From Haloterrigena sp. KLK7 (lineage in GTDB: Archaea > Halobacteriota > Halobacteria > Halobacteriales > Natrialbaceae), in contig NZ_CP149787.1 of NCBI RefSeq assembly GCF_037914945.1, forward strand, positions 248,001 to 312,000: DNA of 64,000 bases. Direction: 5' to 3'. Position 1 is the stretch's first letter; every line of letters begins with the position of its first letter. Positions 1-22,373 of this stretch are shown here, in pieces. The position numbers were made by a program, and so were the translations under genes. The notes beneath the pieces are model-generated. The model was not told the DNA's origin, did no database searches, and worked only from the letters and a program-made list of their open reading frames with translations.

Positions 1-1355
1 ACCAGTTCGTCTCTGATATCGGGTTTTTCGCTCGAGATATCCGTCTGTTCACCGGGGCCATCCTCGACATTATAGAGCGAGATTTCCCCTCCAGATTTCC
101 TGATCAGTTTGTACTCTGTGGTCCTGATCGATCTAATGGATTGACCAAATGCTTCAAGTTCTTCTTCGGGTACATCTGTCTGATTACTCAGACTTGCTAT
201 ACTCGGTTGTGGTGCAAGATATTCTCCGATAGCCTCATTACGCGGCGCTGTGGACGACTTCGGATAGAACGAAGTTCCTTGTGCGTGCTCCGGAATCGTG
301 TGTCCTGCAATATCCAGAATCGTCGGGAAGAGATCCAATGTTTGAATCAACCTGTCTGAGTCACCTACCTGATTGAATTGTCCACCGTGAATGATGAGGG
401 GCACGTGCAGAAGAGTATCGTGCAACGAATATTGGTGATCCATCAGGCCATGATCGCCGATGTTTTCTCCATGATCACCCACAATTATGAGTACTGTATC
501 GTCCCATTCGCCATGTTGCTCAAGTGTCGAGCGTAATTCTCCAATTTGTTCGTCGAGATATGCAATCTCCGCACGATATAATGCTCGTAGTAGTTCAAAA
601 TCGTGGTCGGACATATCAAGGACACCCGCAGTATATTCCCACGGTTTCTGTGGAACTGCCATCGCTTCGCGATACGTACTCCCTTCTGGCAAGAACTGCT
701 CCACGAGTCTCTTTGGGGGCTGATAATCTAAGTGGGGCTCAAGATAGTTTATGAACATAAAGAATGGCGAGCTTTGATCTCTATTCTTGATCCAATTCTC
801 AACTAGTGTATTCGTTCGCTTCGCTCCGTAGTCATTTCGCCGGTAGAAAAACTGGCCATAGACAGCATTAACAAAATTCGCAAGGATATCACCACTAACG
901 AGCCCCGAGATACCCTCTCTAACCAGGCCCCCTCTACCTTCCGATGTAAGTTTGATCTTGCCAAAGTCTGTGTCTGATTGTATATACTGCCACACTTTGC
1001 TCATGTTCTCGAATCCACTAGCTAGCCCAAATTCGTCTGTCACCCACGCGTTATTGGTGAAACCGACAGTCTGATATCCGTCGTCGGAGAGTAGATCGGC
1101 AATAGTCGGGAACTGTCCATCATAGAACTTGCTACCTGCGTGTGTCCCATGTTTGGATGTGTATGTACCTGTGAACATCGACGTGTGAGACGGGAGTGTC
1201 CATGGAGCATTTGCGAACGCATGGTTGTACTCCGCTCCCGTCGTAGCTAACTCCTCTAAACACGAATTGTCAACCGCATTTCGAGCATAGGTTGTATCGA
1301 TCTCACGCGCGGTATCCATTACGACGAGAACGATATTTTTCTTCCCGTTGGTCAT
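1..1355 (-). CDS. Sulfatase-family hydrolase (alkaline phosphatase superfamily), 3' end outside window
   Basis: An open frame runs on the minus strand from an ATG at 1355 to the window edge, so the C-terminus is missing. The N-terminus has the metal-binding Asp of the superfamily (VVMDTAR, about residues 11-17). The sulfatase signature region reads APWTLPSHTSMFTGTY, and a second metal site reads VGDHGENIGDHG. The position filled by Cys or Ser in formylglycine sulfatases is Thr here. By family knowledge that argues for a phosphatase, phosphodiesterase or phosphotransferase acting on surface glycans rather than a classical sulfatase; this is inference. No signal peptide is visible. It diverges from the GT4 gene at 1456 with 100 bp between them, in a glycan island. 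Confidence 0.85.
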   Translation of the reverse strand, partial: MTNGKKNIVLVVMDTAREIDTTYARNAVDNSCLEELATTGAEYNHAFANAPWTLPSHTSMFTGTYTSKHGTHAGSKFYDGQFPTIADLLSDDGYQTVGFTNNAWVTDEFGLASGFENMSKVWQYIQSDTDFGKIKLTSEGRGGLVREGISGLVSGDILANFVNAVYGQFFYRRNDYGAKRTNTLVENWIKNRDQSSPFFMFINYLEPHLDYQPPKRLVEQFLPEGSTYREAMAVPQKPWEYTAGVLDMSDHDFELLRALYRAEIAYLDEQIGELRSTLEQHGEWDDTVLIIVGDHGENIGDHGLMDHQYSLHDTLLHVPLIIHGGQFNQVGDSDRLIQTLDLFPTILDIAGHTIPEHAQGTSFYPKSSTAPRNEAIGEYLAPQPSIASLSNQTDVPEEELEAFGQSIRSIRTTEYKLIRKSGGEISLYNVEDGPGEQTDISSEKPDIRDEL

Positions 1356-1455
1356 AGATGTGAAGTCATTTCGTTCACAACTCTTAAAACTGCGCTGTTT
1401 CGTAATTCTTTGTTCTCGAAGGGTATATCCGAATTGACGAGATATCCTATCTAAC
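1356..1455. promoter_or_regulatory. Divergent promoter region between sulfatase-like gene and GT4
   Basis: These 100 AT-rich bases separate two divergent starts (ATG at 1355 minus, GTG at 1456 plus). TATA-like stretches lie near 1384-1390 (for the minus gene) and 1420-1430 (for the plus gene), at distances compatible with leaderless archaeal transcripts. Inferred from spacing only. Confidence 0.4.
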
Positions 1456-2625
1456 GTGGTCGAAAAAAGGTCTTCAACCGAGGATGAATCAGGTCCACCT
1501 CTACGGGTTCTAGCTCTGAACAAGCGGAGCTGGCATCACTCACAGGCCGGTGGCTCCGAGCTAAACCTGGAGGAAACGATGAAAGGTCTTGCCCAGCGTG
1601 GCCACGAGGTTCACCTTTTGACCGGCTCCGATGAGGGTCGATCGCGGGCGGAACTCGACGGCTCTGTACGCATCCACCGGGTCGGATTCGACGAGAAGGT
1701 TCCTGCACCGTGGGACGTTGTGCTTTCGTACCTGACTGTCTCGTTGTACTTCTACTGGTATCTATACAAGTTATCTCCCGACATCGTCTATACTGTGAAT
1801 ACGCCACTACCGTGGCCCGTTATTACTCGCAAACCGCGAGTCTCTATCTTCCATCATATCGCGATTGACTCGTTCTTCGATACACATCCGTTCCCCCAGA
1901 ACGTCCTGGGGTACGTTTCACAGTCACTCGGCGTGTTCCGTGAACGCCGGAATTTAACTGTAAGCGTTAGTCCGAGCACGACGGAAGAACTAGTGAACCG
2001 AGGACACAGTCCGGAGACTGTTTACGAGATACGAAATGGTCTCGACGTGGATCAATATCGTCCCGGAACAGAGTCCTCTACCCCTCGTATAGTGTATATC
2101 GGTGGACTTGAGCGGTACAAAGGTGTGGACCGAATTCCCGAAATCCATGAGATGATACAAGAGATAAGTGATACTTCTATTCGCCTTGATGTCGCTGGTC
2201 GAGAGGGCCCAGTGAAGGATAGCATCGCCGAATATTGCTCATCAGCGAACGATGCGCATTATCACGGATTCGTATCCTTAGACAAAAAAATAGATCTTCT
2301 TCAGTCTGCATGGGTGTTTATCGCCCCTAGTCGAGTGGAAGGGTGGGGGATTGCGGTATTAGAAGCAAATGCCTGTGGTACACCTGCAGTCGGGAGCAAG
2401 GTAAGTGGTCTCCGTGACTCTATTCGCCACAAAGAAACAGGACTACTAGTGGATGGCTCCGATCCAAACGAATTTGCAAGGTCAGTACATCAACTTTTAG
2501 AGGATACCCAACTGAGGGAAGAGATCGGTGAGAACGCTCGAGAATGGGCAGAGAAACACACTTGGGAAAAATCTACTGATCAACTTGAAGAACTCTTTCT
2601 CTCAGCCGCTACGGAAACTAATTGA
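1456..2625 (+). CDS. GT4-family glycosyltransferase
   Basis: A 389-residue GT-B fold glycosyltransferase that probably transfers a sugar from a nucleotide-sugar donor to a lipid-linked surface glycan in the cytoplasm. The N-terminal acceptor domain contains the glycine-rich loop HSQAGGSELNLEE (residues 28-40). The C-terminal domain begins near residue 210 (RIVYIGGLERYKG) and carries the donor-site E-x7-E motif, E295 and E303, in SRVEGWGIAVLEANACGTP. The GTG at 1456 is chosen because the next candidate would cut into the first beta strand. The 3' end overlaps the convergent GT4 gene at 2580 by 46 bases, an unusual tail-to-tail overlap. Sugar specificity cannot be read from the sequence. Confidence 0.9.
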   Translation: MVEKRSSTEDESGPPLRVLALNKRSWHHSQAGGSELNLEETMKGLAQRGHEVHLLTGSDEGRSRAELDGSVRIHRVGFDEKVPAPWDVVLSYLTVSLYFYWYLYKLSPDIVYTVNTPLPWPVITRKPRVSIFHHIAIDSFFDTHPFPQNVLGYVSQSLGVFRERRNLTVSVSPSTTEELVNRGHSPETVYEIRNGLDVDQYRPGTESSTPRIVYIGGLERYKGVDRIPEIHEMIQEISDTSIRLDVAGREGPVKDSIAEYCSSANDAHYHGFVSLDKKIDLLQSAWVFIAPSRVEGWGIAVLEANACGTPAVGSKVSGLRDSIRHKETGLLVDGSDPNEFARSVHQLLEDTQLREEIGENAREWAEKHTWEKSTDQLEELFLSAATETN

Positions 2626-3755
2626 TAGCACTCTTCTAATCGATCGATTCGAGACTCGATCGCGAAATTCCGTTCTGCACTCTCGCGTGCGTTCTCGCTC
2701 ATTGTTGCGACTCTCTTCGAATCATTCACACAGCTAATCATCGCCTCGACTAACTCATCAGCGTCGCCTGGCTCTATGAGTATAGAGTTTTCACCGTCAG
2801 TCACTCCAGGGGCACCCTCAGAAAGCTTAGAGGCGATCACCGGCGTTCCGGAAGCATATGCCTCCATTATTGTCAGCGTCGGGAATGCCTCTCCACTCTT
2901 CGAGGTAAATAAGAATACATCCGCAGCAGCGTAGCATCGCCTGACCTCGTCGTCAGTGAGTGTCCCCATCACTTCCAGATTTGAATGTCTCTGGCTAGCG
3001 ACATCGACTTCGTCCTTCATTGGCCCATCACCCGCTATAGCAACGTGTACATTGATCTCCCTCTGGTTGAGTTTCTTCACTGCTTCTAATAATGTATCCA
3101 CACCCTTCTTTTGGGACATACGAGACAGGGTGAAGAATACGAGATCGTCCCTCCCACAGTTGAAAACATCGTGTTTATCACAGTCCCGTGGTTGGTATGA
3201 TTCTGTATCTATCCCATTGACCATGAGCTCTGTGCTCGCCTTGTTATCAATCTGAGTAACATATTCTTCAATGTCTGCACTGACACAGAACACATGGTCA
3301 ACTCGGCGGAGATTCCATCCACCGATGAGCCGGTCATTAAGATATTCAACTGCTCGAATCGGAAGTGGATAATCAACGTACGGGGTATGTTGATGCAGCA
3401 GTACCGGGATCGATGAGGGAGCGTATCGAAGCACCATCGACGTTGTCAGATAATTCATTCCATGTACGTGGAGCACATCGACGTCTTCTGCGAAGACCCT
3501 GTCAATGGCTTTACTCACACTTGGTGGATAGGGAATCGGATACGGGATACCGAACTGCTCCGCAGGATTCCATGCCTTGTACCGCATGATCCGGTATCCG
3601 TCACGGTCGACGTCCATCTGGCTGGCTCCAATATCACTGCTGAGTACCGTAACGTCATGGCCTCGAGAACTAAGTCGCGTGGCATGTGACTCAACTACCG
3701 ACTCAATACCGCCAATATGCGGGTGAAAATAATGCGATGCAAGTACGATTTTCAT
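2580..3755 (-). CDS. GT4-family glycosyltransferase
   Basis: A 391-residue GT-B enzyme. It begins MKIVLASHYFHPHIGGIESV, the GT4 N-terminal Rossmann strand with its glycine-rich acceptor loop. The donor domain (from about residue 200, DLVFFTLSRMSQKKGVD) contains GEAFPTLTIMEAYASGTP with the E-x7-E pair. The ATG at 3755 is the obvious start. It converges on the GT4 gene at 1456 and overlaps it by 46 bases, so the two transcripts are antisense over their ends. It is likely part of the same surface-glycan pathway; donor and acceptor are unknown. Confidence 0.9.
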   Translation of the reverse strand: MKIVLASHYFHPHIGGIESVVESHATRLSSRGHDVTVLSSDIGASQMDVDRDGYRIMRYKAWNPAEQFGIPYPIPYPPSVSKAIDRVFAEDVDVLHVHGMNYLTTSMVLRYAPSSIPVLLHQHTPYVDYPLPIRAVEYLNDRLIGGWNLRRVDHVFCVSADIEEYVTQIDNKASTELMVNGIDTESYQPRDCDKHDVFNCGRDDLVFFTLSRMSQKKGVDTLLEAVKKLNQREINVHVAIAGDGPMKDEVDVASQRHSNLEVMGTLTDDEVRRCYAAADVFLFTSKSGEAFPTLTIMEAYASGTPVIASKLSEGAPGVTDGENSILIEPGDADELVEAMISCVNDSKRVATMSENARESAERNFAIESRIDRLEECYQLVSVAAERKSSSS

Positions 3756-4169
3756 TGTATTGGCCGATATTGTCCTCTTACTATATTCTGACTGGAGGCA
3801 CGCATTAAATCTTCCTTATGTTAGATATTGGCTTCTGGGAACACTCAGGGTCTCTATGAAGTCCTTAGCAGTACAATAGTAAAAAATTCCTTTAATAAAT
3901 GCAGGTATCTCTACTCGGTTAATTTGATGAAGCAGAGAATTACGCACATTGGATTGCAGAGACTTTTCGTGAGCGAGGTTACAACACCTTTAAATCGAAA
4001 TAGTAGTAGGAAAGCTACTTGAAATTGCTAGAACAAATATTCAAAATTAATATATAGGATAGATTCTATATCTCACCCCTCATTTATATGATTTCACAAA
4101 TCGAGATGTCTGAATGATACCTACTAAAGGAGTGTTGCAAAAGATATATCGCACCCATGACTCATATAA
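3756..4169. promoter_or_regulatory. AT-rich divergent intergenic region
   Basis: 414 bases between GT4 genes starting at 3755 (minus) and 4170 (plus). The stretch is markedly AT-rich and holds no convincing ORF; a 64-codon frame at 3828-4022 has no family-like content. A TATA-like run near 4140-4150 sits about 27 bases before the plus-strand start. Confidence 0.5.
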
Positions 4170-5375
4170 ATGCATATGGCCTCAATCTGTTTGATCAACG
4201 CTTTTTTCCCGCCACATGAGTTCGGTGGGGCAGAAAACTATGTATTTAGGATCGCGAAGGAACTGGTATCTGAAGGACACGATGTTTCGGTTATTGCGGC
4301 AAAACCCTTCGACGGGTCTTTGAAGGCGGAACACGCTAAATTTGAGGGAATAAATGTATACTACTTTTACCCAGCAAATATCTCCTATCGAGGAAACGGA
4401 ACGGGGTCGAATCCAGTGGCGAAAGGAATCTGGCATCAGTTAGATACCGTCAATCTACATTCGAGATCGGTCGTTCGAAAGCTACTCAAAGAAATCGATC
4501 CGGATATCGTTCACACAAACAATCTGATGGGAATATCGACAGCAATTGGAAAGCCAATACAAAAGCATCGAAGTCTCCATGTCCACACGCTTCACGACTA
4601 CAGCCTCATATGTCCAAAAAGTAACTTGCTCCGTGACAGGACAGCTCCCGATGACGAGTTGCAAGTTTGTAACGATCCACCTCTCCCCTGCAAAGGGTTC
4701 AAGAAACTCAAACAATCCACGTTTGGAACACCAGATATTGTCACAGGTCCTAGTAACCACGTAATTGAGATCCATAACCAACATGGATACTTTAGTGAGG
4801 CCGAGCAGCAACGGTTACAATTAGGTGTCGAAGCACCAGTTGATACCGTTCCGGAACGTTCACAAGAGCCGTCTGTTCTCTACGTTGGAAAACATTTGAA
4901 GGCAAAAGGGCTTGATACACTGTACGAGGCGGCCACTGAGCTACCAGAGGTGACCTTTCACATCTGTGGAACGGGTCCATACGACGAGGTGGCGAAAGAG
5001 AAGTCTAGGGAACACGAGAACATAGTATACCATGGGTATATAGACGACGACGAGCTCGATACCCTACGTCAGCGAGTATCCGCTGCAGTAATTCCCTCTA
5101 TCTGGATGGAGAACTCTCCTCTAACCATCTACGAGAGCTTTCGAGTTGGACTTCCTGTTATCGGAAGCGACATTGGTGGCATTCCTGAACTAGTGAACGA
5201 AGGCAAGACGGGGTGGTTATTCACACCAGGAGATTCAAATGAATTGATCAAGACAATTCGTAAAGTAGTGTTTCAGTCTAATAAGGAAGTCCGGGAAAGC
5301 GCAATAAGCTGGGCGGAAAAACATACAATAAAGAATCACGTGGAGAAACTCACCGAAACCATATACAACCACTGA
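4170..5375 (+). CDS. GT4-family glycosyltransferase
   Basis: 401 residues with a GT4 N-terminus (ICLINAFFPPHEFGGAENYV) and a donor domain starting near residue 233 (SVLYVGKHLKAKGLDTLYEA). The E-x7-E region reads WMENSPLTIYESFRVGLP. The ATG at 4170 and the in-frame ATG at 4176 are both possible; the second fits the family alignment slightly better. Its stop overlaps the next start (the A of TGA is the A of ATG at 5375), so it is translationally coupled to the membrane protein downstream. Together they look like a glycan-assembly operon. Confidence 0.9.
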   Translation: MHMASICLINAFFPPHEFGGAENYVFRIAKELVSEGHDVSVIAAKPFDGSLKAEHAKFEGINVYYFYPANISYRGNGTGSNPVAKGIWHQLDTVNLHSRSVVRKLLKEIDPDIVHTNNLMGISTAIGKPIQKHRSLHVHTLHDYSLICPKSNLLRDRTAPDDELQVCNDPPLPCKGFKKLKQSTFGTPDIVTGPSNHVIEIHNQHGYFSEAEQQRLQLGVEAPVDTVPERSQEPSVLYVGKHLKAKGLDTLYEAATELPEVTFHICGTGPYDEVAKEKSREHENIVYHGYIDDDELDTLRQRVSAAVIPSIWMENSPLTIYESFRVGLPVIGSDIGGIPELVNEGKTGWLFTPGDSNELIKTIRKVVFQSNKEVRESAISWAEKHTIKNHVEKLTETIYNH

Positions 5376-7135
5376 TGAAGAAGAAGTTTGCTATTGCGGG
5401 ATATATTTGCTTCGCCATCTATACTATCTCACTTCTACAAACATCAGCAACTAGGTATTATAACAGCATATATAATGCGCTCCCTGTCTGGGTGTGGGTT
5501 GTGTTCTCTCTCGGATTAGCGATCGGTACACTTATTCTCTATTTAGGAGTTAAAAACCACACTAGACGACTTCAGATCCACGGAATTTCGATTGTTGGTT
5601 GCTTGATTGGAGTCTTCTGGTTCTATGCTGAGTTGCTCGGATTGCGGTTCTGGTCAGCTCCAGGAGAAGATCTTCTTTTGCACTTCGGACAAGGTATAGC
5701 TATTGCAGAAACGGGCACAATTAGCTCCGAGAACATCTATCCACTCCTTCATACAACACTTGCTCAGTTGCATTTCATTACAGGTCTTCCTGTTGACCGA
5801 TTTGGTCCTGTTCTCTCTCTCCTCTATTATCCCCTCTTGCTAGCCGGTATCGTGCTTCTCGTCCGCCGATATTCGAGCAAACGTATCGCATTGTTTGTTG
5901 GAGTAGCAGCCGTCCCGATCTTTTACTGGAAATATGCCCACCATCTCATGCCGTGGGTAGCGTACTTCGCATTAATACCCCTATTAGTATTAATGTTGTC
6001 AATTCATAGGTCAGAGGTCCGAAGTTCACAACGCTCATATATTGGAATGGGGATACTCCTCCTCTCCTTTGGTATTGGGATCGGACATCCGATGTCCGGC
6101 TTAGTTGCCATGCTTGTAGTCGCTACAATTATAGTTACCCAGCGACTTGCCGGACGATGGGGATTCGAAGAGGAGTATCAACAGCCGATGGAGGTGTTGA
6201 TTCTTTCTCCACTTATCGTCGCTTATCCGATGTGGTATTTGATCAAATCAACATTCCAAGGATTTCTTTTTAGGACAGTAGCATCTTTCTATTCCGAAAC
6301 AACCGAAGCAGGTTCTCAGGCTGAAAGAGCAGCAGAATCGGGTTACACGATATGGCAAATCATTCAGAGGTGGATTATAGAACAGTGGGGACCAGGATTG
6401 GTTATCCTCGCCATCGGGGCTGCCGTCGCGGTAGTGATCCTACGCCGAGTGATATTAAGGGAGGCGACAGTTGGGGAAATTATCATTCTTTCTGTATACT
6501 CTATTGGGATTATGGTAGCAGTATCAACCCTCACCTTTGATTTGGTGGTAAATACAGAAGTTTACCGACCGAATCAGATCACAATTGCGGCAGCGATCGT
6601 TCTATTTGGGTTCGCACTCTGGTGGACAACCGACCATTCCGAAGGCCGTCGAGGAGTTGTGCTCCGTTCCGTGATGGTTCTCATCCTCGTTCTTTGCGTA
6701 GTATGGGCACCGTTCACAATATATTATGAACCCCAACATATTTCGGAGCAAGAATTTGTTGGGTCCGAGCATCATCTGGAATACCGGGTTGAGGAGACGA
6801 CGACCTATTCAGATTCAATGCCGAGACGGATTTCTCTCTATTTGGAAGGATTGCACGAGGTCTCTTCGTGGGAAAATCGTGCATTCGGTGGAACGAATTC
6901 AGAGCTACCGAAGTTTTTGGGATATGACAAAAATAGGACTGTTTCGGAAAGTCTGGAGAGAGAGGAATATTACTTAATTACAAAAGAACGTGACACTGAA
7001 TGGTATAAACAAGAACCGACGAATCGCTACCCCTATCTCACATATTACACTGAAGAAAATGTCGACAGACTTCATGATGATCCAACAGCAAATAAGATAT
7101 ACACCAACAGTGGCTACTCTATCTGGCAGGGGTAA
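5375..7135 (+). CDS. Multi-spanning membrane protein, possible GT-C-type glycosyltransferase
   Basis: 586 residues with about ten to twelve hydrophobic segments and a soluble C-terminal tail of about 130 residues. After the second or third segment a loop reads GEDLLLHFGQGIAI, followed by NIYPLLHTTLAQLHFITGLP. An acidic residue in the first large loop with a following histidine-rich stretch resembles the GT-C fold of lipid-linked sugar transferases, but this is inference and not a confident family match. It shares one base with the upstream GT4 gene, which points to joint action at the membrane. A glycan polymerase or ligase is an alternative. Confidence 0.7.
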   Translation: MKKKFAIAGYICFAIYTISLLQTSATRYYNSIYNALPVWVWVVFSLGLAIGTLILYLGVKNHTRRLQIHGISIVGCLIGVFWFYAELLGLRFWSAPGEDLLLHFGQGIAIAETGTISSENIYPLLHTTLAQLHFITGLPVDRFGPVLSLLYYPLLLAGIVLLVRRYSSKRIALFVGVAAVPIFYWKYAHHLMPWVAYFALIPLLVLMLSIHRSEVRSSQRSYIGMGILLLSFGIGIGHPMSGLVAMLVVATIIVTQRLAGRWGFEEEYQQPMEVLILSPLIVAYPMWYLIKSTFQGFLFRTVASFYSETTEAGSQAERAAESGYTIWQIIQRWIIEQWGPGLVILAIGAAVAVVILRRVILREATVGEIIILSVYSIGIMVAVSTLTFDLVVNTEVYRPNQITIAAAIVLFGFALWWTTDHSEGRRGVVLRSVMVLILVLCVVWAPFTIYYEPQHISEQEFVGSEHHLEYRVEETTTYSDSMPRRISLYLEGLHEVSSWENRAFGGTNSELPKFLGYDKNRTVSESLEREEYYLITKERDTEWYKQEPTNRYPYLTYYTEENVDRLHDDPTANKIYTNSGYSIWQG

Positions 7136-7136
7136 T

Positions 7137-8033
7137 TTAGGTATGATCCCCGTACCCGAGTGCATCTAAATGCTCCATCAGCTCCTCATCATCAGCGCTT
7201 CGGGTTTCCTTTGGCTCCTCGGAGATTATCGTTCGTCGCTGTTCGTGAGTGACCTCAAACCAAGGGACGGTTACTAATTCATCATAATATACGCCAAGAG
7301 GGTGCCCATATTCTCTCATCCAGAAGGGAGGTTTCCGCTCTCCGAGCATCTCCCCGTGATCTGCGGATATAACGCTTTTACCATCTATTGTATTCAGAAG
7401 GCGACGCACTTCCTCGAGAACAGAATCGAGTGTTTCTCTGTATGCCCGTCTCAATAGGTCATTTGTTACCTCTGGGAGTTGAACGAACTCATTGACAGTG
7501 AGGCCAGGCATTTCTTCGAAATACTCACGGCCGCTTTGAATATATGGCGCATGGGGCTGGACGTAGTGGATGATGAGCCTTTTATTCGGATTTTCATTAT
7601 GTGCTTCGATCGCCACATCTGTTACATCTTCAGGATCAACTGTCCCAGCCGAATTTCGGTATTCTTCGCCGGTAAGCCAATACGAATCATAGAGAGATGA
7701 GTTGATATCCTCACGGAGAGATTTTAGCCAACCGTTTGCCGTAACATACACGAGATCGTGTTCTTCACGCTCCTTAAATGTATTTCTGACCCATTCCTTC
7801 GTGGCAGATCCTAGTGATGGTTTTGATGATAGTTCTCCAGTTAAATCCATTCGGCCAATCGAATCTTTGAAGATATCGTACCGGCATGCGTCAAGTATTA
7901 TAAGAGTGTCCCAGTCTTCATTTAGAAGGTTTACTCCTTCAGGCCGTGGTCGAAAGAGCGTATGTCGAAGCAGCTCATGTTGAACAGCTGATGGATTTTT
8001 GACAGCATGGGTTATTTCATCAATCGAATACAT
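7137..8033 (-). CDS. Alkaline phosphatase/sulfatase-superfamily protein
   Basis: A 298-residue protein with the core strand TLIILDACRYDIF (D48, C50), a histidine in the central strand (H161, QPHAPY) and metal ligands SADHGE (D225, H226) and H244 in REYGHPLG. The nucleophile position appears to be the Cys of DACRYD, but the CxPSR context needed for formylglycine formation is absent, so sulfatase activity is doubtful. It is shorter than typical sulfatases (450-500 residues). It converges on the membrane protein ending at 7135 with one base between them, and diverges from the GT2 gene at 8267. A role in adding or removing a phosphate or sulfate group on a surface glycan is inferred. Confidence 0.8.
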   Translation of the reverse strand: MYSIDEITHAVKNPSAVQHELLRHTLFRPRPEGVNLLNEDWDTLIILDACRYDIFKDSIGRMDLTGELSSKPSLGSATKEWVRNTFKEREEHDLVYVTANGWLKSLREDINSSLYDSYWLTGEEYRNSAGTVDPEDVTDVAIEAHNENPNKRLIIHYVQPHAPYIQSGREYFEEMPGLTVNEFVQLPEVTNDLLRRAYRETLDSVLEEVRRLLNTIDGKSVISADHGEMLGERKPPFWMREYGHPLGVYYDELVTVPWFEVTHEQRRTIISEEPKETRSADDEELMEHLDALGYGDHT

Positions 8034-8232
8034 GATTAGCTGTTAATATTGGGCGATAGCAGTCCCGTCTTAATTAATATTTGGTCATCAGACCGATCCT
8101 TGACAACCCTACTTAATTTCATAATTAAATTGATTTGATTGGGTGCTATTTCCTGTTCATGAATTATAGGAACTAAAGGGGGTAAGGGCTCAACTAGTTT
8201 GAGGAAACACGCCTCCCGCTTAATCTAAAACC

Positions 8233-8244
8233 CATATATTTATT
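8233..8244 (+). promoter_or_regulatory. TATA box for the GT2 gene
   Basis: The AT run TATATTTATTTT is centred about 29 bases before the ATG at 8267, the spacing expected for a leaderless haloarchaeal promoter. No Shine-Dalgarno sequence precedes the start, which supports this reading. Confidence 0.55.
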
Positions 8245-8266
8245 TTCACGCGTATATAACTAGTAT

Positions 8267-9190
8267 ATGTGTATGAATGAGGCTCTGGTGTCCATTATCA
8301 TTCCAACCTATTATCGGAACGAGTCACTTACAGACGCTATCGAATGCTCTTTACGTCAAACGCACGATCGGACTGAGGTCATAGTAGTCGATGATTCGGG
8401 CGAAGCGCACGCCCGACCGGTCGTCGAAGAGTACGAGGAGGATAGTCTACAGTACATTCCACACGAGGAAAATCAGGGCGGAAATCCGGCCCGAAATACC
8501 GGATACGAGGCAGCACGTGGAGACTATATCCAATTTCTTGACGACGATGACGAGATATTCCCGAGCAAAATTGAAAAACAAGTCTCCGTTATCGAGTCAT
8601 CGCCCGACGTTGGTGTCGCCTACGGAGGGATAGTCGATCGAGATGGCGCTCGACGGCTACCTCGTCCGTCTGAACAAGGCCGATCGCTCGAGCTGGCGCT
8701 CCAGTTTTTTTGGCCAACGACGATCACGTCCTCTTTATTGATCTCCGATGAGGTGTTGTCGAGCGTTTATCCACTCCAAAATCGTAGCGCCGCAGACGAT
8801 ATTGGAATGAAAATCGAACTCGCGAAACGGACGCAGTTCGATTATGTTGATGAGGTTCTCACTAGGATTGGAGATTCGACCGATAGCCGATCCGGAGGGA
8901 TGGAATATGTCTCCGAACTCGAGGCCATCCTGGATGAGTACCAGAGGGAATACGACGAGTTTCCAGCTGTTGTGAGGCGAAACGCGCTAAGTGATACGTA
9001 TCGGACGAAGGCTCGAGTATTACTTGACGAACGTATCTGGTCGGCTTCTGCAGTCTACTACTACCTTTTGGCGTTAACCAATAAACGAGAGTTCGACCCA
9101 ATCCTTATCCTGAGTATCCTTGCGTCTTTATTCGGCAGGCCGGGTATAATAATATCGAGAAGAATATACAAAAGAGCAGTGTCTAGTTGA
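8267..9190 (+). CDS. GT2-family glycosyltransferase
   Basis: 307 residues of GT-A fold. The N-terminal VSIIIPTYYRNESL strand, the VIVVDDSG uridine-binding strand, GGNPARNTGYEAARGDYIQF and the metal-binding acidic run LDDDDE (about residues 93-98) are all in the usual order. The ATG at 8273 (MNEALV) is an equally good start. No membrane segment is present, so it acts as a soluble or peripheral transferase. It is followed at once by a transposase remnant that may mark the edge of an inserted block. Confidence 0.9.
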   Translation: MCMNEALVSIIIPTYYRNESLTDAIECSLRQTHDRTEVIVVDDSGEAHARPVVEEYEEDSLQYIPHEENQGGNPARNTGYEAARGDYIQFLDDDDEIFPSKIEKQVSVIESSPDVGVAYGGIVDRDGARRLPRPSEQGRSLELALQFFWPTTITSSLLISDEVLSSVYPLQNRSAADDIGMKIELAKRTQFDYVDEVLTRIGDSTDSRSGGMEYVSELEAILDEYQREYDEFPAVVRRNALSDTYRTKARVLLDERIWSASAVYYYLLALTNKREFDPILILSILASLFGRPGIIISRRIYKRAVSS

Positions 9191-9230
9191 GTCAATTTGA
9201 GAAGTGAGTAGATCGCGAAGTTAAGTTGGA

Positions 9231-9751
9231 TTGATACTCGCAGGCCTGCTCAGCGATAGTTACGCGGCGGATTTAGAAGAATCTTGGAAGAACGAGCGGA
9301 CGGCGACGCCGTCGCGGGTCGTTGTCGACGAAACCGCTGTCAAGACTAACGGCGAGTGGTCTTGGCTGTATACTGCAATAGACCTCGAGGAGAAGTTGAT
9401 TCTCGACGTTGCGTTGTTTAGTCGACATAGTACTGATCCGGCGGCTGCGTTTCTGCAGAAGCTCCGCGAGAAACACAATCTCTCCGAGACTGAGTTTCTT
9501 GTTGATCAATTTGACCATCGAACTGCTTTCTTCCGAGTCGACTGAGCGGCCGGGTCAACTATACCAAACGAAACCTCCTCGAAAAGTGGTTTCACACCCT
9601 CAAAATGCGAATCAACTGCTTCCATAATTCATGGGTAGGCAGTCGGGCGAGCGTCCGAAAGTGCCTTGAACAGTTCGCACATTTCTATAACCATCATAGA
9701 CCGCATCAAGCTCTTAACGGAAAAGTGCCAGTTACGGAGGTGCAGAAATAG
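9231..9751 (+). pseudogene. Transposase remnant (DDE type, IS6-like), 5'-truncated and frameshifted
   Basis: The frame from 9231 gives a DDE-integrase-like stretch with VVVDETAVKTNGEWSWLY and LREKHNLSETEFLVDQF, then stops at 9545. Reading on in another frame from about 9538 gives LSGRVNYTKRNLLEKWFHTL and ends YNHHRPHQALNGK..VTEVQK with a stop at 9749-9751. A frameshift near 9538 therefore splits the gene, separating the third acidic catalytic residue from the first two. The 5' part is missing: an in-frame TAA lies at 9222-9224 and no methionine start is present. The IS6-like assignment rests on general resemblance to haloarchaeal elements. No terminal repeats were found. Confidence 0.8.
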
Positions 9752-9896
9752 ACAGTACCGTCGATAATCATATTCTCTCCTGACTAAATAATAGATAGAT
9801 TATATGTGTAATTGTTGAAAGGGATTCTAAGTTGATGATGGCACAATACAGAAGATAGTTGCCAACTAATATATACGACCGTTCCGAAGTGAAGGT

Positions 9897-11078
9897 ATGA
9901 AACTCCTCTATGTTGTTAACGCCTTTCCCAAACTCTCGGAAAGTTTTGTGATTAACGAAATCAAAGAACTCCATGATAGAGGGCATGATGTGTCTGTATT
10001 CGCAATGTCAAAATCAGAGGAAGAAATTAAACATACAGAACTCCAAGAGATGAACATTACTGTTTACTATAAGTACAAACCATCCCTCCAGGATTTTCCT
10101 GACTTGATCTCTAAGAAGATATTACATCCAAGCGTACTCCGACGTGCTCTGTTCATTGAGGAACCCCTACATCATGCATATTATCTTCATCTTGGAAGGC
10201 AAATTATTGAGGCAATTGAAAGAGAAGGAGGTGTAGATTTGATACATGGTCACTTTGTCACTCCTAACCGCTTTGCAGTTACGTATGCTGCAGCATATTA
10301 TAATATTCCATGTACTGTAACTGCACACGCCCATGAGATATTTTCACCACCTAATCTCCGGCGGTTAAAACAGGTGTGCTCACGCTTTGACCATATGATT
10401 GTCCCGTCTGAATATAACAAACAGTACCTCCGAAAGGAAATTGGTATTGACACGGATATGTCAGTAGTCCCAGCAACGACAGACGTAAAAAAATTCGAGC
10501 CGAGTGAAGGATGTATATCTGGTCGGCTTTTAACTATTGGACGTCTTGTGGAGAAGAAAGGTTATAAGTATTCAATTGATGCAGTTGCGAACCTCATTAA
10601 ACGCGGGTATGATGTAGAGTATCACATTATCGGTACTGGAGAGCAGAAAGATTCTCTTATAGATAGAGTTAAACAAAAAGGTATAGAGGAACATGTTGAG
10701 TTCTTAGGACATGTTCCCGATGACAAGCTTCAAGAAGAATTACATGAGGCTGAACTCTTCATTCTTCCATGTATTATTGCCTCAAATGGAGATCGGGATG
10801 TCGCACCTGTAGCCTTAAAGGAAGCAATGGCAACTAAAACAGCGTGCATCTCCACGACAATTTCGGCAATACCTGAATTGATCACTGATGGGCATGATGG
10901 TTTGCTTGTCAAACCGAACAATACACCGGCCTTAACTAATGCAATTACAGAACTATTAGATAATCCTGATCGACGACAAGAACTCGCAGCAAACGGTCGA
11001 AAAACCGTTCAAACTCAATTCGATATTTCAAATTCTGTTGATGATTTAGTTAAAGTGTTTTCATCTATAAGAAAATAA
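9897..11078 (+). CDS. GT4-family glycosyltransferase (colanic-acid-type)
   Basis: 393 residues beginning MKLLYVVNAFPKLSESFVIN, the N-terminus typical of exopolysaccharide GT4 enzymes of the WcaL/AmsK kind. Later come GRLVEKKGYKYSIDAV (donor domain) and DVAPVALKEAMATKTACIST, with Glu at the second position of the E-x7-E motif. The gene is strikingly AT-rich with AT-ending codons, unlike the GC-rich genes after 12.4 kb, a sign of foreign origin or of an old island. A TATA-like ATATATACG run lies about 25 bases upstream. Confidence 0.9.
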   Translation: MKLLYVVNAFPKLSESFVINEIKELHDRGHDVSVFAMSKSEEEIKHTELQEMNITVYYKYKPSLQDFPDLISKKILHPSVLRRALFIEEPLHHAYYLHLGRQIIEAIEREGGVDLIHGHFVTPNRFAVTYAAAYYNIPCTVTAHAHEIFSPPNLRRLKQVCSRFDHMIVPSEYNKQYLRKEIGIDTDMSVVPATTDVKKFEPSEGCISGRLLTIGRLVEKKGYKYSIDAVANLIKRGYDVEYHIIGTGEQKDSLIDRVKQKGIEEHVEFLGHVPDDKLQEELHEAELFILPCIIASNGDRDVAPVALKEAMATKTACISTTISAIPELITDGHDGLLVKPNNTPALTNAITELLDNPDRRQELAANGRKTVQTQFDISNSVDDLVKVFSSIRK

Positions 11079-11301
11079 ACTATTCATAATTTAATTTGCA
11101 TATTCAATTTAATATCTCTTATTCACCCCGCTCTTAGGTTATTTGATGCAACTAGATGACTGTTACCGAATGCATAGGTGATCCTCAAGAGATTTCAGCA
11201 GTTATAGCAATAGCACTAATTCTTAGTATAACTCTATTCGTTAATAATCATCAAAACTTAAATATATGTCTAATTTGCACGTCTAGTCAATGAGATCCAA
11301 C

Positions 11302-12324
11302 CTATAATAGTTCATCTAATCTATTGAAATTATCTTTCGCTAGTGATTGGAGCGAGCTCACATTAGATACTTGAGAAAATTGGAGGGGAATTTCTTTGTG
11401 GGGTCTATACCATGGAACTTCTAGACGCTCAGCAACGGCCTCTACTTTCGGTTCGTAGGCTAAAGGTAAGACTGGTTTCCCACAAATAGCTGCAAATATA
11501 AGAGAGTGATAACGCATTGTCACCATCTTTTCCATTTGACTGACACGCTTCAGAGTCTCTTCAACAGAGAACGTGTATTCTAGAACAGGAATGTCAAGAT
11601 GCTCCCTAGCGAATTTTTCATCAATTGAGTGGAACGGAATAAAAATCGGATCTTCTATTTTATCACATATGTCTTTTATATTTCTCATATATGATTCTCT
11701 TGCATTATCTAAATCATCATAACCAAAGTAATATTTTAATACACTATCTGGCTTATCCTCCTGACTGAAGTAAGGTCGGAAATTCACACCAGTCCGTCCA
11801 TTTGTTTCCATTCTTGGATCGTCGTAAAGGAATGCTGGGCAAGCAGTTACCGACACTTCGACATCACAGACCGATTCAATATTGCGTTTTGACCATTTAT
11901 CACGAACAGTGATCAAATCTAGTTTAGGTAATATTTGAGAAATTAGGTTCTGAGCATCAGCTGATTGAAACCCAGGTGCGCCTACCCCAATAATAAATCC
12001 ATTTTTACCGCTGCTTACATAAGTGAGACGCTTTTTTAAATGTTCTGTCCCATACCAATCATGTAAAACACCACCGCCACCGAGTACTCTGTTAGGTGTA
12101 TTACTAGTTTCAGTGTGCCTGTCGAATATCCTAGCACTATGTCCTCCTTTCTCAAGTTGCTTTTTAAATTGTTTTCCTAATGCGCGGTCACCAATATTAC
12201 CAGTTTGGTAACTACCTTGAATGCCAAAATCGTGAGGAGTCCGCTTCCGTACTTGATAATCAATTTCCTTTGGGATAAGAGAAGGGTTCCTCAACCCAAC
12301 GAGTATTTCCTTCGGGGAATACAT
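11302..12324 (-). CDS. Polysaccharide pyruvyl transferase family protein
   Basis: 340 residues of the WcaK/CsaB-like family, which adds pyruvate ketals to surface sugars. Visible landmarks are the N-terminal GSYQTGNIGDRALG (about residues 37-50), the glycine-rich VLGGGGVLHDWYG and the C-terminal VTMRYHSLIFAAICGKPVLP, the usual nucleotide-binding half of this GT-B-like fold. It is AT-rich like the GT4 gene at 9897, with which it converges across 223 bases of AT-rich spacer without a gene. The likely role is acidic decoration of the glycan made by neighbouring transferases. Confidence 0.85.
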   Translation of the reverse strand: MYSPKEILVGLRNPSLIPKEIDYQVRKRTPHDFGIQGSYQTGNIGDRALGKQFKKQLEKGGHSARIFDRHTETSNTPNRVLGGGGVLHDWYGTEHLKKRLTYVSSGKNGFIIGVGAPGFQSADAQNLISQILPKLDLITVRDKWSKRNIESVCDVEVSVTACPAFLYDDPRMETNGRTGVNFRPYFSQEDKPDSVLKYYFGYDDLDNARESYMRNIKDICDKIEDPIFIPFHSIDEKFAREHLDIPVLEYTFSVEETLKRVSQMEKMVTMRYHSLIFAAICGKPVLPLAYEPKVEAVAERLEVPWYRPHKEIPLQFSQVSNVSSLQSLAKDNFNRLDELL

Positions 12325-18864: not shown

Positions 18865-19779
18865 ATGCAAAATCAGCGCATCCTCATCACGGGTGGGGCA
18901 GGCTTCATTGGTTCCAATCTGGCGAACGCGCTCGCCGACGAGAACGACGTCATCGCGATCGACGACGAGTACCTCGGGACGCCCGAGAACCTCGAGGCCG
19001 CCGTCGACTACCGCAACCGGAGCGTCCTCGAGGACGACCTCCCGACGGACGTCGACGTCGTCTTCCACCTCGCCGCGCTCTCGTCGTACGCGATGCACGA
19101 GGAAGACCCCACCACGGGGGCCCGCGTGAACGTCGAGGGCTTCGTCAACGTTGTCGATCAGGCCCGCCAGGACGGCTGTGAGACCGTCGTCTACGCCTCC
19201 ACCTCCTCGATCTACGGGAGCCAGACCGAGCCCTCCCCGGAGGACATGCCGGTCGCGGTCAACACCGGCTACGAGGCCTCCAAGCTGGCCCGCGAGCGCT
19301 ACGGCGAGTACTTCGCCAACCACTACGACATGGACGTCGCCGGGATGCGCTTCTTCTCGGTCTACCAGGGCTACGGCGGCGCCGAGGAACACAAGGGCGA
19401 GTACGCCAACGTGATCGCCCAGTTCGCCGATGACCTCGCCAGCGGCGACGCCCCGGTCCTCTACGGCGACGGCACCCAGACCCGCGACTTCACCCACGTC
19501 GACGACATCGTCCGCGGCCTCGAGCTCGCGGCCGACCACGAGCTCACCGGCGTCTACAACCTCGGCACCGGCGACGCCTACAGCTTCAACGAACTCGTCG
19601 GGATGCTCAACGAGGAACTCGGCACCGACATCGACCCCGAGTACGTCGAGAACCCGATTCCCGAGGATGTCTATGTTCATGACACGTGTGCGGACTCGAG
19701 CAAGATGCGCGAGGCGACCGGCTGGGAACCCGAGATCGACCTCGAGGAGGGCATCGAGCAGGTCTGCGAACCATATTGA
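18865..19779 (+). CDS. NAD-dependent sugar epimerase/dehydratase (SDR)
   Basis: 304 residues from the ATG at 18865 (an in-frame GTG at 18844 would add seven residues). The NAD loop GGAGFIGSNL is at residues 10-19; STSSIYG and Y136-x3-K140 in YEASK form the active site. GDGTQTRDFTHVDDIVRGLE is the usual NDP-sugar-binding region. The C-terminus VHDTCADSSKMREATGWEPE is nearly repeated by the orphan fragment at 22266-22373. It probably makes an NDP-sugar intermediate for surface glycans; the substrate is not identifiable. Confidence 0.9.
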   Translation: MQNQRILITGGAGFIGSNLANALADENDVIAIDDEYLGTPENLEAAVDYRNRSVLEDDLPTDVDVVFHLAALSSYAMHEEDPTTGARVNVEGFVNVVDQARQDGCETVVYASTSSIYGSQTEPSPEDMPVAVNTGYEASKLARERYGEYFANHYDMDVAGMRFFSVYQGYGGAEEHKGEYANVIAQFADDLASGDAPVLYGDGTQTRDFTHVDDIVRGLELAADHELTGVYNLGTGDAYSFNELVGMLNEELGTDIDPEYVENPIPEDVYVHDTCADSSKMREATGWEPEIDLEEGIEQVCEPY

Positions 19780-20498: not shown

Positions 20499-20628
20499 GC
20501 CGTGTCCTATGACCTCAACGGTTATAGACCTGCAGGCACACTAGCTGGGACTGCCGAGATTACTCGGTCGACTACTTCCGGTCAGCGGCGGACACGACGA
20601 GCGCAACTACCTAAAACAGCGAGAGTCC

Positions 20629-20691
20629 CGCCGTTTACGGCGTTGGCGAGAGCGGAGCTCTCGTTCGCACATCAGAACGCGAAGCGTTCTG
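20629..20691. repeat. Three consecutive stem-loops, possible left end of the TnpB element
   Basis: Stems are CGCCG/CGGCG with loop TTTA (20629-20642), CGAGAGC/GCTCTCG with loop GGA (20647-20663), and an 8-bp perfect stem CAGAACGC/GCGTTCTG with loop GAA (20673-20691). The first resembles the right-end hairpin of the element. They lie just past the stop of the small minus-strand ORF, so a terminator role for that gene is another possibility. The remaining 20499-20628 shows no gene. Confidence 0.55.
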
Positions 20692-20734
20692 AGGACGGGC
20701 GTGAATCGCGTCACTCGACGACGCGAACCACCGG

Positions 20735-20875
20735 TTACTCCCCGGCCGGAGTCTCCAAGTCGTCGGCGGCGTGGATCAACATCCCGCGCCACGTCAGACC
20801 GTGTTCGTTTTTCACGCGTTTGATGCGCTCGTACTGTTCATCGTCGGGTACTTCGATGTTAACGTAGTTCGACAC
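20735..20875 (-). CDS. Small divergent ORF of the TnpB element (ribbon-helix-helix-like)
   Basis: 46 residues, starting at a GTG (20875): VSNYVNIEVPDDEQYERIKR then VKNEHGLTWRGMLIHAADDL and a short tail. The layout of a short beta strand (YVNIEVP) followed by two helices looks like a ribbon-helix-helix DNA-binding fold. It is divergent from tnpB with 56 bases between the two starts, so both promoters overlap. Small ORFs of this sort accompany many haloarchaeal IS1341-type tnpB genes. I infer a repressor of tnpB or of the guide RNA. No ATG is available in frame, so the start is the least certain point. Confidence 0.7.
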   Translation of the reverse strand: MSNYVNIEVPDDEQYERIKRVKNEHGLTWRGMLIHAADDLETPAGE

Positions 20876-20931
20876 AGTATCTACGATAATCCGTAGGTTT
20901 ACGTTAGTTACGCTCGTATACAGAAGTAGCG

Positions 20932-22212
20932 ATGAAGCGCACCAACGAATTCGAAGTAGTTCCCCAGTCCGACGCGGACGAGGAGTTGCTTCGGCGCCTG
21001 TTGGACGCTTCAGCCGCCCTCTGGAACGAGATCAACTACGAACGGCGAACGAACTTCGAGAACCCGGACGGCGACGTTTGGGAGATCGACGAGTACCGCG
21101 GTCGGTATGGCGGTACTATCGGTGCGTCGACCGTTCAACAAATCGAACGCAAGAATCGCGAAGCGTGGCGCTCGTTTTTCGCACTCCGAGAGAAGGGCGA
21201 AGCCAACGGCAAGCCCGGCTTCTGGGGCAACCAAGACGAGGGCCGCAACCTGCGGACGTACATCCGGAACACATCATACTCGGTCGAGTGGGGCGAATAC
21301 TCCCGACTCGAGATACTCGTTGGCCAGGACCTGAAAGAAGAGTACGGTCTTGGATACCGCGAGCGGCTTCGGCTCGAAGTTCGTGGCGAGCCGAACTGGA
21401 AAGGGTACGAGAAACAGGGCCGGTTGAAACTGTACTACGACGAGCGTTCGGACCAATTCAGGGCCTTTCAGCCAGTCACAATCGGCAATTCTCGACTGGC
21501 ACAACCACTGGCGGACGAATCCGCCGCCCTGGATATCGGTGCGAACAATATCGTCGCCTGTACGACCACGACCGGAGAGCAGTACCTGTACGAAGGACGC
21601 GACCTGTTCGAACGGTTCCGCGAGACCACACAACGGATTGCCGAACTCCAGTCGAAACTCGGGGACGGCCGGTACAGTTCGAAACGGATCGATCGGCTGT
21701 CCCGACGTCGGACGCGACGGCGCGACCACGCGATGGACGCGCTCGTTCGCGACTTGATCGGCCGACTGTACGACGGGGGTGTTTCGACGGTGTACGTCGG
21801 CGACCTTACGGACGTCCTCGAGACGCACTGGTCGGTTCGGACCAACGCCAAGCTGCACAACTTTTGGGCGTTCCGCCGGTTCGTCGAGCGACTCTCGTGT
21901 ACGGCCGAAGAGTTCGGTATCACCGTCGAAGTTCGAACAGAAGCGTGGACTTCGAAAACGTGTCCGAACTGCGGTTCGACTAAGGACACAACACGCCACC
22001 AGGACACGCTTACCTGTCTCTGCGGCTTCGAAGGTCACGCGGACCTCACGGCAAGCGAGATGTTCCTAAGGCGGCACGAAACGGTAGCACGGCCGATGGC
22101 ACGGCCCGTGTGCCTCAAGTGGGACAGTCACGAATGGCTGGAGTCACCACACTCTCCCCGTCCCAACGAGGAGTACACGAACCCGCAAGTTGCCTCCGTG
22201 GACTCGGCATAG
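20932..22212 (+). CDS. tnpB: TnpB RNA-guided nuclease-family protein (IS1341 type)
   Basis: 426 residues. The N-terminal half (1-190) is the REC/WED-like region. The RuvC core starts with D201 (AALDIGANN), the third acidic residue is D371 ([10 protein letters not shown]), and a zinc finger is formed by C344, C347, C362 and C364 (CPNCG...CLCG). At the RuvC-II position, where most TnpB proteins have E in an E-D-L motif, this protein reads V-G-D-L (G290-D291), with E297 nearby. Active family members use an RNA copied from their own 3' end to cut DNA and keep the transposon in the genome. The gene is intact. Its 3' end runs into the hairpins of the right end. Confidence 0.88.
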
Positions 22213-22264
22213 CCGAGACTCCCAGCGCGAGGAAACCCCGGCGTTCACGCCGGGGAGGATGTCA
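22203..22264 (+). ncRNA. Likely 3' scaffold of the TnpB guide RNA and right end of the element
   Basis: Two hairpins follow one another: CTCGGC/GCCGAG around the tnpB stop codon (22203-22217), and an 8-bp perfect stem CCCCGGCG/CGCCGGGG with loop TTCA (22236-22255). The end GAGGATGTCA closes at 22264. In characterised TnpB systems the guide is the 16-20 nt just past this end; here it would begin at about 22265 (TGTCCACGACACC...). The boundary is supported by the copy at 50554-50583. Expression is not shown by sequence. Confidence 0.6.
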
Positions 22265-22265
22265 T

Positions 22266-22373
22266 GTCCACGACACCTGCGCCGACTCGAGCAAGATGCG
22301 CGAGGAAACGGGCTGGGAACCCCAGATCTCCCTCGAGGAGGGGATCACACAGGGCTGCGCGCCGGACACGTAA
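22266..22373 (+). pseudogene. C-terminal remnant of a second SDR epimerase
   Basis: From the element's right end the frame reads VHDTCADSSKMREETGWEPQ and ISLEEGITQGCAPDT, then stops. This matches the last 35 residues of the epimerase at 18865-19779 with a few substitutions. The 5' part of this copy is missing: the sequence to the left of the TnpB element is unrelated. So a paralogous epimerase was cut by the insertion and then lost its front by deletion or rearrangement. Confidence 0.85.

What the first reader, a model, noticed from the sequence alone, without database searches (positions are those of the whole stretch)
20629..22264. TnpB element with a tiny divergent RHH-like gene and no TnpA
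A complete tnpB is paired head to head with a 46-residue gene (20735-20875) that has a strand-helix-helix layout and a GTG start, 56 bases apart. Sequence shows the pairing; that TnpB proteins are RNA-guided nucleases is established. The inference is that the small protein is a repressor of tnpB or its guide RNA, which would be an accessory regulator of a CRISPR-ancestor system.
Basis: partly seen in the sequence, partly recalled or inferred. Interest (0 to 1): 0.65.

Follow-up and report, generated by a model that had tools for sequence, protein, structure and literature searches.

The report
Tiny DNA-binding repressor paired with TnpB
In salt-loving archaea, jumping genes that carry the CRISPR-ancestor nuclease TnpB but no transposase carry instead a tiny, probably DNA-binding protein that very likely switches the nuclease gene off, and these switch modules have been swapped repeatedly between elements.

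Summary
A 46-residue GTG-start gene (20735-20875, minus) lies 56 nt head to head from a complete tnpB (20932-22212). It is a real protein (dN/dS 0.04-0.19 in four relative sets) with an RHH-like (ribbon-helix-helix) model. An order-wide search independent of tnpB found homologues in 104 of 293 haloarchaeal genomes; of the single-domain loci checked, 103 of 114 have an adjacent divergent tnpB. Start-to-start gaps are mostly 52-59 nt, in two distant TnpB groups.

In 128 tnpB-anchored loci: tnpA only 35, RHH only 83, neither 10, both 0. Partners switch at least 13 and 9 times on the two TnpB trees. In the window's own clade F1 and F2 are exchanged with the whole intergenic promoter. In one F1 lineage a dyad in the shared promoter shows compensatory changes.

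Best explanation: an autoregulatory repressor of tnpB, replacing tnpA. DNA binding, repression and any effect on guide RNA are untested. TnpB group A lacks the canonical RuvC-II glutamate but has an invariant glutamate elsewhere. I found no earlier description in the papers searchable here.

The parts
20611..22265 (+). transposable unit (IS200/IS605, IS1341-type, no tnpA) carrying the RHH gene and tnpB; CTAC at 20607-20610 is the presumed target/TAM
   Evidence: four copies in Haloterrigena sp. H1 and two in Natrinema gelatinilyticum share ~1,605 bp from CTAC|CTAAAACAGCGAGAG to ...GGATGTCAT with different flanks
20630..20641 (+). left-end near-terminal palindrome GCCGTTTACGGC
   Evidence: sequence
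20735..20875 (-). 46-aa RHH-like protein of family F1 (GTG start, stop included)
20876..20931 (.). shared divergent promoter region; candidate dyad CTACG-6-CGTAG at 20881-20896 (not significant alone), TATA-like TTTACG 20898-20903
   Evidence: covariation shown in the relatives with 53-nt gaps, not in this sequence alone
20932..22212 (+). tnpB, 426 aa, group A
21532..21534 (+). RuvC-I catalytic Asp D201
   Evidence: 46/46
21799..21801 (+). Gly G290 where the RuvC-II catalytic Glu is expected
   Evidence: Gly in 46/46
21940..21942 (+). Glu E337 before AWTSKTC, candidate replacement catalytic Glu
   Evidence: Glu in 46/46 of group A, Pro/Ala in group B
22042..22044 (+). RuvC-III catalytic Asp D371
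   Evidence: 46/46
22123..22265 (+). probable 3' omega-RNA scaffold with right-end hairpin 22236-22255
   Evidence: weak HgcC match 22123-22277, 22.2 bits against gathering score 50; hairpin from sequence
22266..22285 (+). flank that would be the guide; 3' part of an epimerase gene remnant
   Evidence: guide role inferred from known TnpB biology

Best explanation
A TnpB-only transposon unit carries a minimal RHH (ribbon-helix-helix) protein that binds a dyad operator in the 56-nt gap between the two genes. That gap holds both divergent promoters, probably leaderless with overlapping TATA regions, so a bound RHH would shut off tnpB and its own gene: an autoregulatory repressor. It replaces tnpA in the tnpB slot. 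Shown: the pairing, its fixed geometry, purifying selection on the ORF, mutual exclusion with tnpA, repeated partner exchange, joint exchange of regulator and promoter, and dyad covariation in one F1 lineage. Inferred: DNA binding, repression as the sign of regulation, and the purpose (keeping nuclease and copy number low).
For: 103 of 114 single-domain homologues found without reference to tnpB have an adjacent divergent tnpB, mostly 52-59 nt start to start, in two TnpB groups alike mainly in the RuvC half. RHH-like model, pLDDT 89.9; 5 of 8 listed PDB matches look like RHH or beta-alpha-alpha proteins (HicB, RelB, DinJ, a beta-alpha-alpha peptide, MazE9), all at E above 4. dN/dS 0.04-0.19. 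tnpA and RHH never together: 35 tnpA only, 83 RHH only, 10 neither, 0 both in 128 tnpB-anchored loci, Fisher p 1e-22. F1-to-F2 exchange with boundaries near the RHH 3' end and at the tnpB ATG. Dyad covariation in F1/group A: 77.3% of cells paired against 63.5 +/- 2.1 shuffled, score 0.382 against at most 0.193 when slid. RHH residue 3 goes with an inner operator motif in 25 of 26 loci.
Against: No expression, binding or repression data. Dyad signal is clear only in F1 with group A and 53-nt gaps; absent in F1 with group B and not significant in the window alone (p 0.74). Covariation shuffles do not control relatedness. The RHH fold rests on a model and weak structural matches; no Pfam hit reaches its cut-off. 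Eleven single-domain F1 loci have no adjacent tnpB. F2 beside group B TnpB is codirectional and overlaps tnpB, a different layout. Residue 3 and the operator may simply be inherited together.
Confidence: 0.7

Rival explanations
1. Antitoxin-like partner: the small protein binds TnpB itself and holds the nuclease in check, with autoregulation as a side function.
For: The weak structural matches are largely RHH antitoxins (HicB, RelB, DinJ, MazE9); one F3 protein weakly resembles CcdA (E 0.01).
Against: At 41-48 aa it is little more than an RHH core, without the C-terminal tail with which such antitoxins grip their toxins. At least two RHH types serve 90%-identical TnpBs, and F1 serves two TnpB groups alike mainly in the RuvC half; exchange goes with the promoter, not with changes in TnpB.
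Confidence: 0.1
2. Transposition helper: with no tnpA in the element, the RHH assists mobilisation by a transposase acting in trans, for instance by marking the ends.
For: It occupies the tnpA slot and excludes tnpA. RHH units are recently mobile: four copies 96-98% identical in one genome, and the window genome has tnpA elsewhere.
Against: Cassette exchange tracks the tnpB promoter while the element's left end stays conserved; no shared RHH-linked motif was seen at the ends; operator signal lies between the two genes.
Confidence: 0.08
3. Activator rather than repressor, or a bidirectional switch that raises tnpB expression under some condition.
For: The same geometry would suit an activator; direction cannot be read from sequence.
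Against: The covarying right arm overlaps the TATA-like region, which favours occlusion; minimal autonomous RHH proteins are mostly repressors (general knowledge).
Confidence: 0.08
4. Unrelated host regulator that hitchhikes and acts on other genes.
For: Two-domain F1 proteins and a few single-domain ones stand away from tnpB.
Against: About 90% of single-domain F1 loci and 29 of 30 independently found F2 loci are beside tnpB at fixed spacing.
Confidence: 0.04

Closest known systems
IS200/IS605-family IS1341-type (tnpB-only) elements of haloarchaea
   Same: tnpB without tnpA, near-terminal palindromes, no target duplication; Haloquadratum paper PMC3119063 reports most tnpB genes without linked tnpA
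   Different: Here the missing tnpA is replaced by a conserved micro-RHH gene; the passages of PMC3119063 that I read (a term search) mention none, and public annotation calls it hypothetical
Minimal RHH repressors of the Arc/CopG type
   Same: about 45 aa, strand-helix-helix layout, adjacent operator with a dyad, presumed autoregulation
   Different: No sequence match to Pfam RHH families above cut-off; tied to tnpB; haloarchaea only in the phylum sample
TldR (TnpB-like nuclease-dead repressors)
   Same: TnpB-family protein with an altered RuvC site
   Different: In TldR the TnpB-like protein is the repressor; here a separate RHH is the presumed repressor, and group A keeps an invariant candidate replacement Glu
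Anti-CRISPR-associated (Aca) regulators
   Same: works like: small DNA-binding protein controlling a neighbouring gene of an RNA-guided system
   Different: Aca proteins control inhibitors of CRISPR, not the nuclease, and are not RHH-tnpB pairs; comparison from memory

Membership tests
IS200/IS605 TnpB (IS1341-type element) | TnpB domains (OrfB_IS605, TNB/zinc ribbon) | tested here: met
IS200/IS605 TnpB (IS1341-type element) | no tnpA in the element | tested here: met
IS200/IS605 TnpB (IS1341-type element) | precise ends with subterminal hairpins, different flanks, no target duplication | tested here: met
   absence of duplication read from the printed ends
IS200/IS605 TnpB (IS1341-type element) | canonical RuvC D-E-D | tested here: not met
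   Gly at the RuvC-II Glu in 46/46 group A proteins; alternative Glu invariant. Rearranged sites are a described variation within TnpB (from memory), so this bears on activity more than on membership
IS200/IS605 TnpB (IS1341-type element) | 3' omega-RNA | tested here: inconclusive
   sub-threshold HgcC match only; right-end hairpin present
RHH (Arc/CopG) DNA-binding proteins | strand-helix-helix fold | tested here: inconclusive
   helices 12-24 and 29-41 after an extended N-terminus, strand not formed in the monomer model; RHH matches by name, all weak
RHH (Arc/CopG) DNA-binding proteins | sequence membership in a curated RHH family | tested here: not met
   best RHH_1 E 0.036, below cut-off
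RHH (Arc/CopG) DNA-binding proteins | dimeric binding to a dyad operator | tested here: inconclusive
   dyad covariation in F1/group A only; binding not testable here
TldR | nuclease-dead TnpB-like protein acting as RNA-guided repressor | tested here: inconclusive
   RuvC-II Glu absent but a candidate replacement is invariant; no host-promoter target examined
type II toxin-antitoxin pair | antitoxin with a toxin-binding tail next to a toxin | tested here: not met
   41-48 aa proteins with short tails, partner is TnpB

The most novel reading that the evidence does not exclude
The RHH cassettes act like phage immunity repressors: each element's repressor shuts off tnpB of related incoming copies, so elements fall into immunity groups, and swapping the regulator-plus-operator cassette is an escape route. 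This would account for repeated exchange, diversified operators and the many distinct low-copy tnpB elements noted in haloarchaea.
Probability: 0.25. Interest if true: 0.85.

Novelty: new variant of a known kind. Interest (0 to 1): 0.62.

Why it matters
Why most haloarchaeal tnpB genes have no tnpA has been noted as odd since at least 2011 (PMC3119063). Finding that the tnpA place is taken by small, exchangeable, probable DNA-binding regulators gives these elements a built-in control layer and makes the question testable in laboratory haloarchaea. It would be a dedicated transcriptional regulator of the ancestor of Cas12, with ready-made natural swaps for specificity studies.

Tried and rejected
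Single-sequence inverted-repeat search in the gaps: weak in F1/group A (5 of 30 at p < 0.05), none in F1/group B or F3, 1 of 10 in F2, so the dyad claim rests on covariation only. Independent-contrast test of RHH residue 3 against the operator: only 2 independent pairs on supported branches, no power. Common ancestry of F1 and F2 is not supported: hhalign probability 20.6%. Nuclease-dead TnpB (TldR-like) was not adopted because an invariant Glu appears at RuvC beta5 in group A. Phage records: no F1 match. F1 outside the order: none in the phylum sample; one bacterial-labelled soda-lake MAG contig (L170) is probably misbinned.

Full report
Check. The window (G000:C1:248001-312000) holds a 46-aa GTG ORF at 20735-20875 (minus) and a 426-aa tnpB at 20932-22212 (plus), 56 nt apart. 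TnpB matches NF040570 (E 2.5e-40), PF01385 and PF07282. The small protein matches no Pfam or NCBIfam family; among 40 relatives the best RHH-type hits are ParD 0.06 and RHH_1 0.036, below cut-off.

Is it a gene? Homologues (E up to 1e-3) occur in 104 of 293 genomes and 49 of 87 genera of the order. In four sets of relatives dN/dS is 0.15, 0.04, 0.19 and 0.10, and the true frame has the lowest pN/pS of the six frames. The alignment-based AlphaFold2 model has mean pLDDT 89.9 with helices at 12-24 and 29-41 after an N-terminal extended stretch. Foldseek against PDB gives only weak matches (E above 4), but five of the eight listed are RHH or beta-alpha-alpha proteins by name and my knowledge.

Pairing. 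I fetched about 130 loci found through the small protein. Of 114 distinct single-domain loci with room, 103 have a divergent adjacent tnpB; 9 loci carry two F1 domains and 3 end at a contig edge. Start-to-start gaps are mostly 52-59 nt. TnpBs fall in group A (like the window, full length) and group B (similar mainly in the RuvC half).

The slot. Searching tnpB itself and tnpA (PF01797), then reading upstream regions, shows three kinds of occupant: tnpA, codirectional, mostly 5-15 nt upstream; F1, divergent; or other micro-RHH-like genes. F2 (about 47 aa) is divergent beside group A, and codirectional overlapping or abutting the tnpB start beside group B. F3 (about 41 aa) is divergent beside group B; one member weakly resembles CcdA. 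F1 and F2 are not shown to be homologous. In 254 distinct tnpB genes no tnpA occurs with an RHH. In the 128 tnpB-anchored loci: tnpA only 35, RHH only 83, neither 10, both 0. That sample was partly chosen by me to exclude loci already fetched through F1, so the proportions are not a census; the absence of the double state does not depend on that choice. An F2 search independent of tnpB placed 29 of its best 30 hits next to tnpB.

Exchange. On the group A tree (116 rows) and group B tree (118 rows) partner labels need at least 13 and 9 changes, leaving out rows without a partner. In the window's own clade (15 rows, SH-aLRT 100) two members have F2. Aligned with the window, they share the left part of the element, differ from near the RHH 3' end through the whole intergenic region, and agree again from the tnpB start codon. 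Regulator and promoter therefore move together.

Operator. Single-sequence inverted repeats are weak overall and absent in F1/group B; the window's own CTACG-6-CGTAG has p 0.74. In 22 F1/group A gaps of 53 nt, six symmetric pairs (columns 7-12 with 26-31) give 77.3% paired cells against 63.5 +/- 2.1 in shuffles, 16 cells changed on both sides against 3.9, and score 0.382 against at most 0.193 when slid. The position of the dyad was picked from a scan of the same gaps (where it exceeded the permuted maximum), so the test is not fully independent. Shuffles ignore relatedness; the slid control keeps it. The right arm overlaps a TTATGT element about 25-30 nt from both start codons, consistent with leaderless divergent promoters. 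RHH residue 3 (Glu or Ala/Ser) goes with an inner motif in 25 of 26 loci, but independent pairs are too few to test it.

TnpB. In group A the RuvC-II Glu is Gly in 46/46, aligned with Glu of solved Cas12f; Asp of RuvC-I and III are invariant; a Glu before (A/S)WT(S/T) is invariant where group B has Pro/Ala. This holds broadly whatever the partner. Rearranged catalytic sites in TnpB have been described (Altae-Tran 2023, from memory), so activity is plausible but untested.

Mobility. Four copies in Haloterrigena sp. H1 are 96-98% identical over about 1,605 bp with different flanks, and two in Natrinema gelatinilyticum 99.3%: the RHH travels inside a unit that lacks tnpA. The window copy follows CTAC (20607-20610) and ends ...GTCAT (22265).

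Prior knowledge. Term searches of the held papers found no account of an RHH gene paired with tnpB; I went by titles, abstracts and, for a few papers, returned passages. In PMC3119063 I read only the passages returned for IS1341 and tnpB: they report many tnpB without tnpA (35 of 38 in Natronomonas) and call it unusual, and no small partner gene is mentioned there. PMC12558985 and PMC8303175, read the same way, cover tnpB-derived omega-RNAs. Public annotation calls the protein hypothetical beside TnpB. Subscription papers are mostly not held, so novelty is 'not found', not 'proved new'.

Verdict. A conserved, probably DNA-binding regulator of tnpB, most likely an autorepressor, in a slot otherwise held by tnpA. 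New variant of a known kind; interest 0.62.

Noticed in passing
window 21799-21801 and 21940-21942: Group A TnpBs lack the canonical RuvC-II Glu (Gly in 46/46) but carry an invariant Glu at RuvC beta5, a likely rearranged catalytic site, whatever the partner gene.
   Followed up: partly
window 22266-22360 and 18868-19779: The right flank is the 3' part of an epimerase gene, 83% identical to the intact epimerase 2.5 kb upstream, but the left flank is not its 5' part, so the site has been rearranged.
   Followed up: partly
G000:C2:347663-347887 (L100); also L032, L070, L103, L106, L134: Two-domain F1 proteins of about 100 aa, like a fused RHH dimer, away from tnpB; partner genes unknown.
   Followed up: partly
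window 22123-22277: Sub-threshold match to Rfam HgcC (22.2 bits, gathering 50), sharing the right-end hairpin and GGAGGAnGUCA; HgcC may itself be a TnpB omega-RNA.
   Followed up: no
window 1-12000: G+C 0.39-0.49 against 0.66-0.72 in most of the window beyond 14 kb, suggesting an acquired island.
   Followed up: no
L170: F1 homologue on a contig labelled Thermomicrobiaceae (bacterial MAG, soda-lake sediment), probably a misbinned haloarchaeal contig.
   Followed up: no
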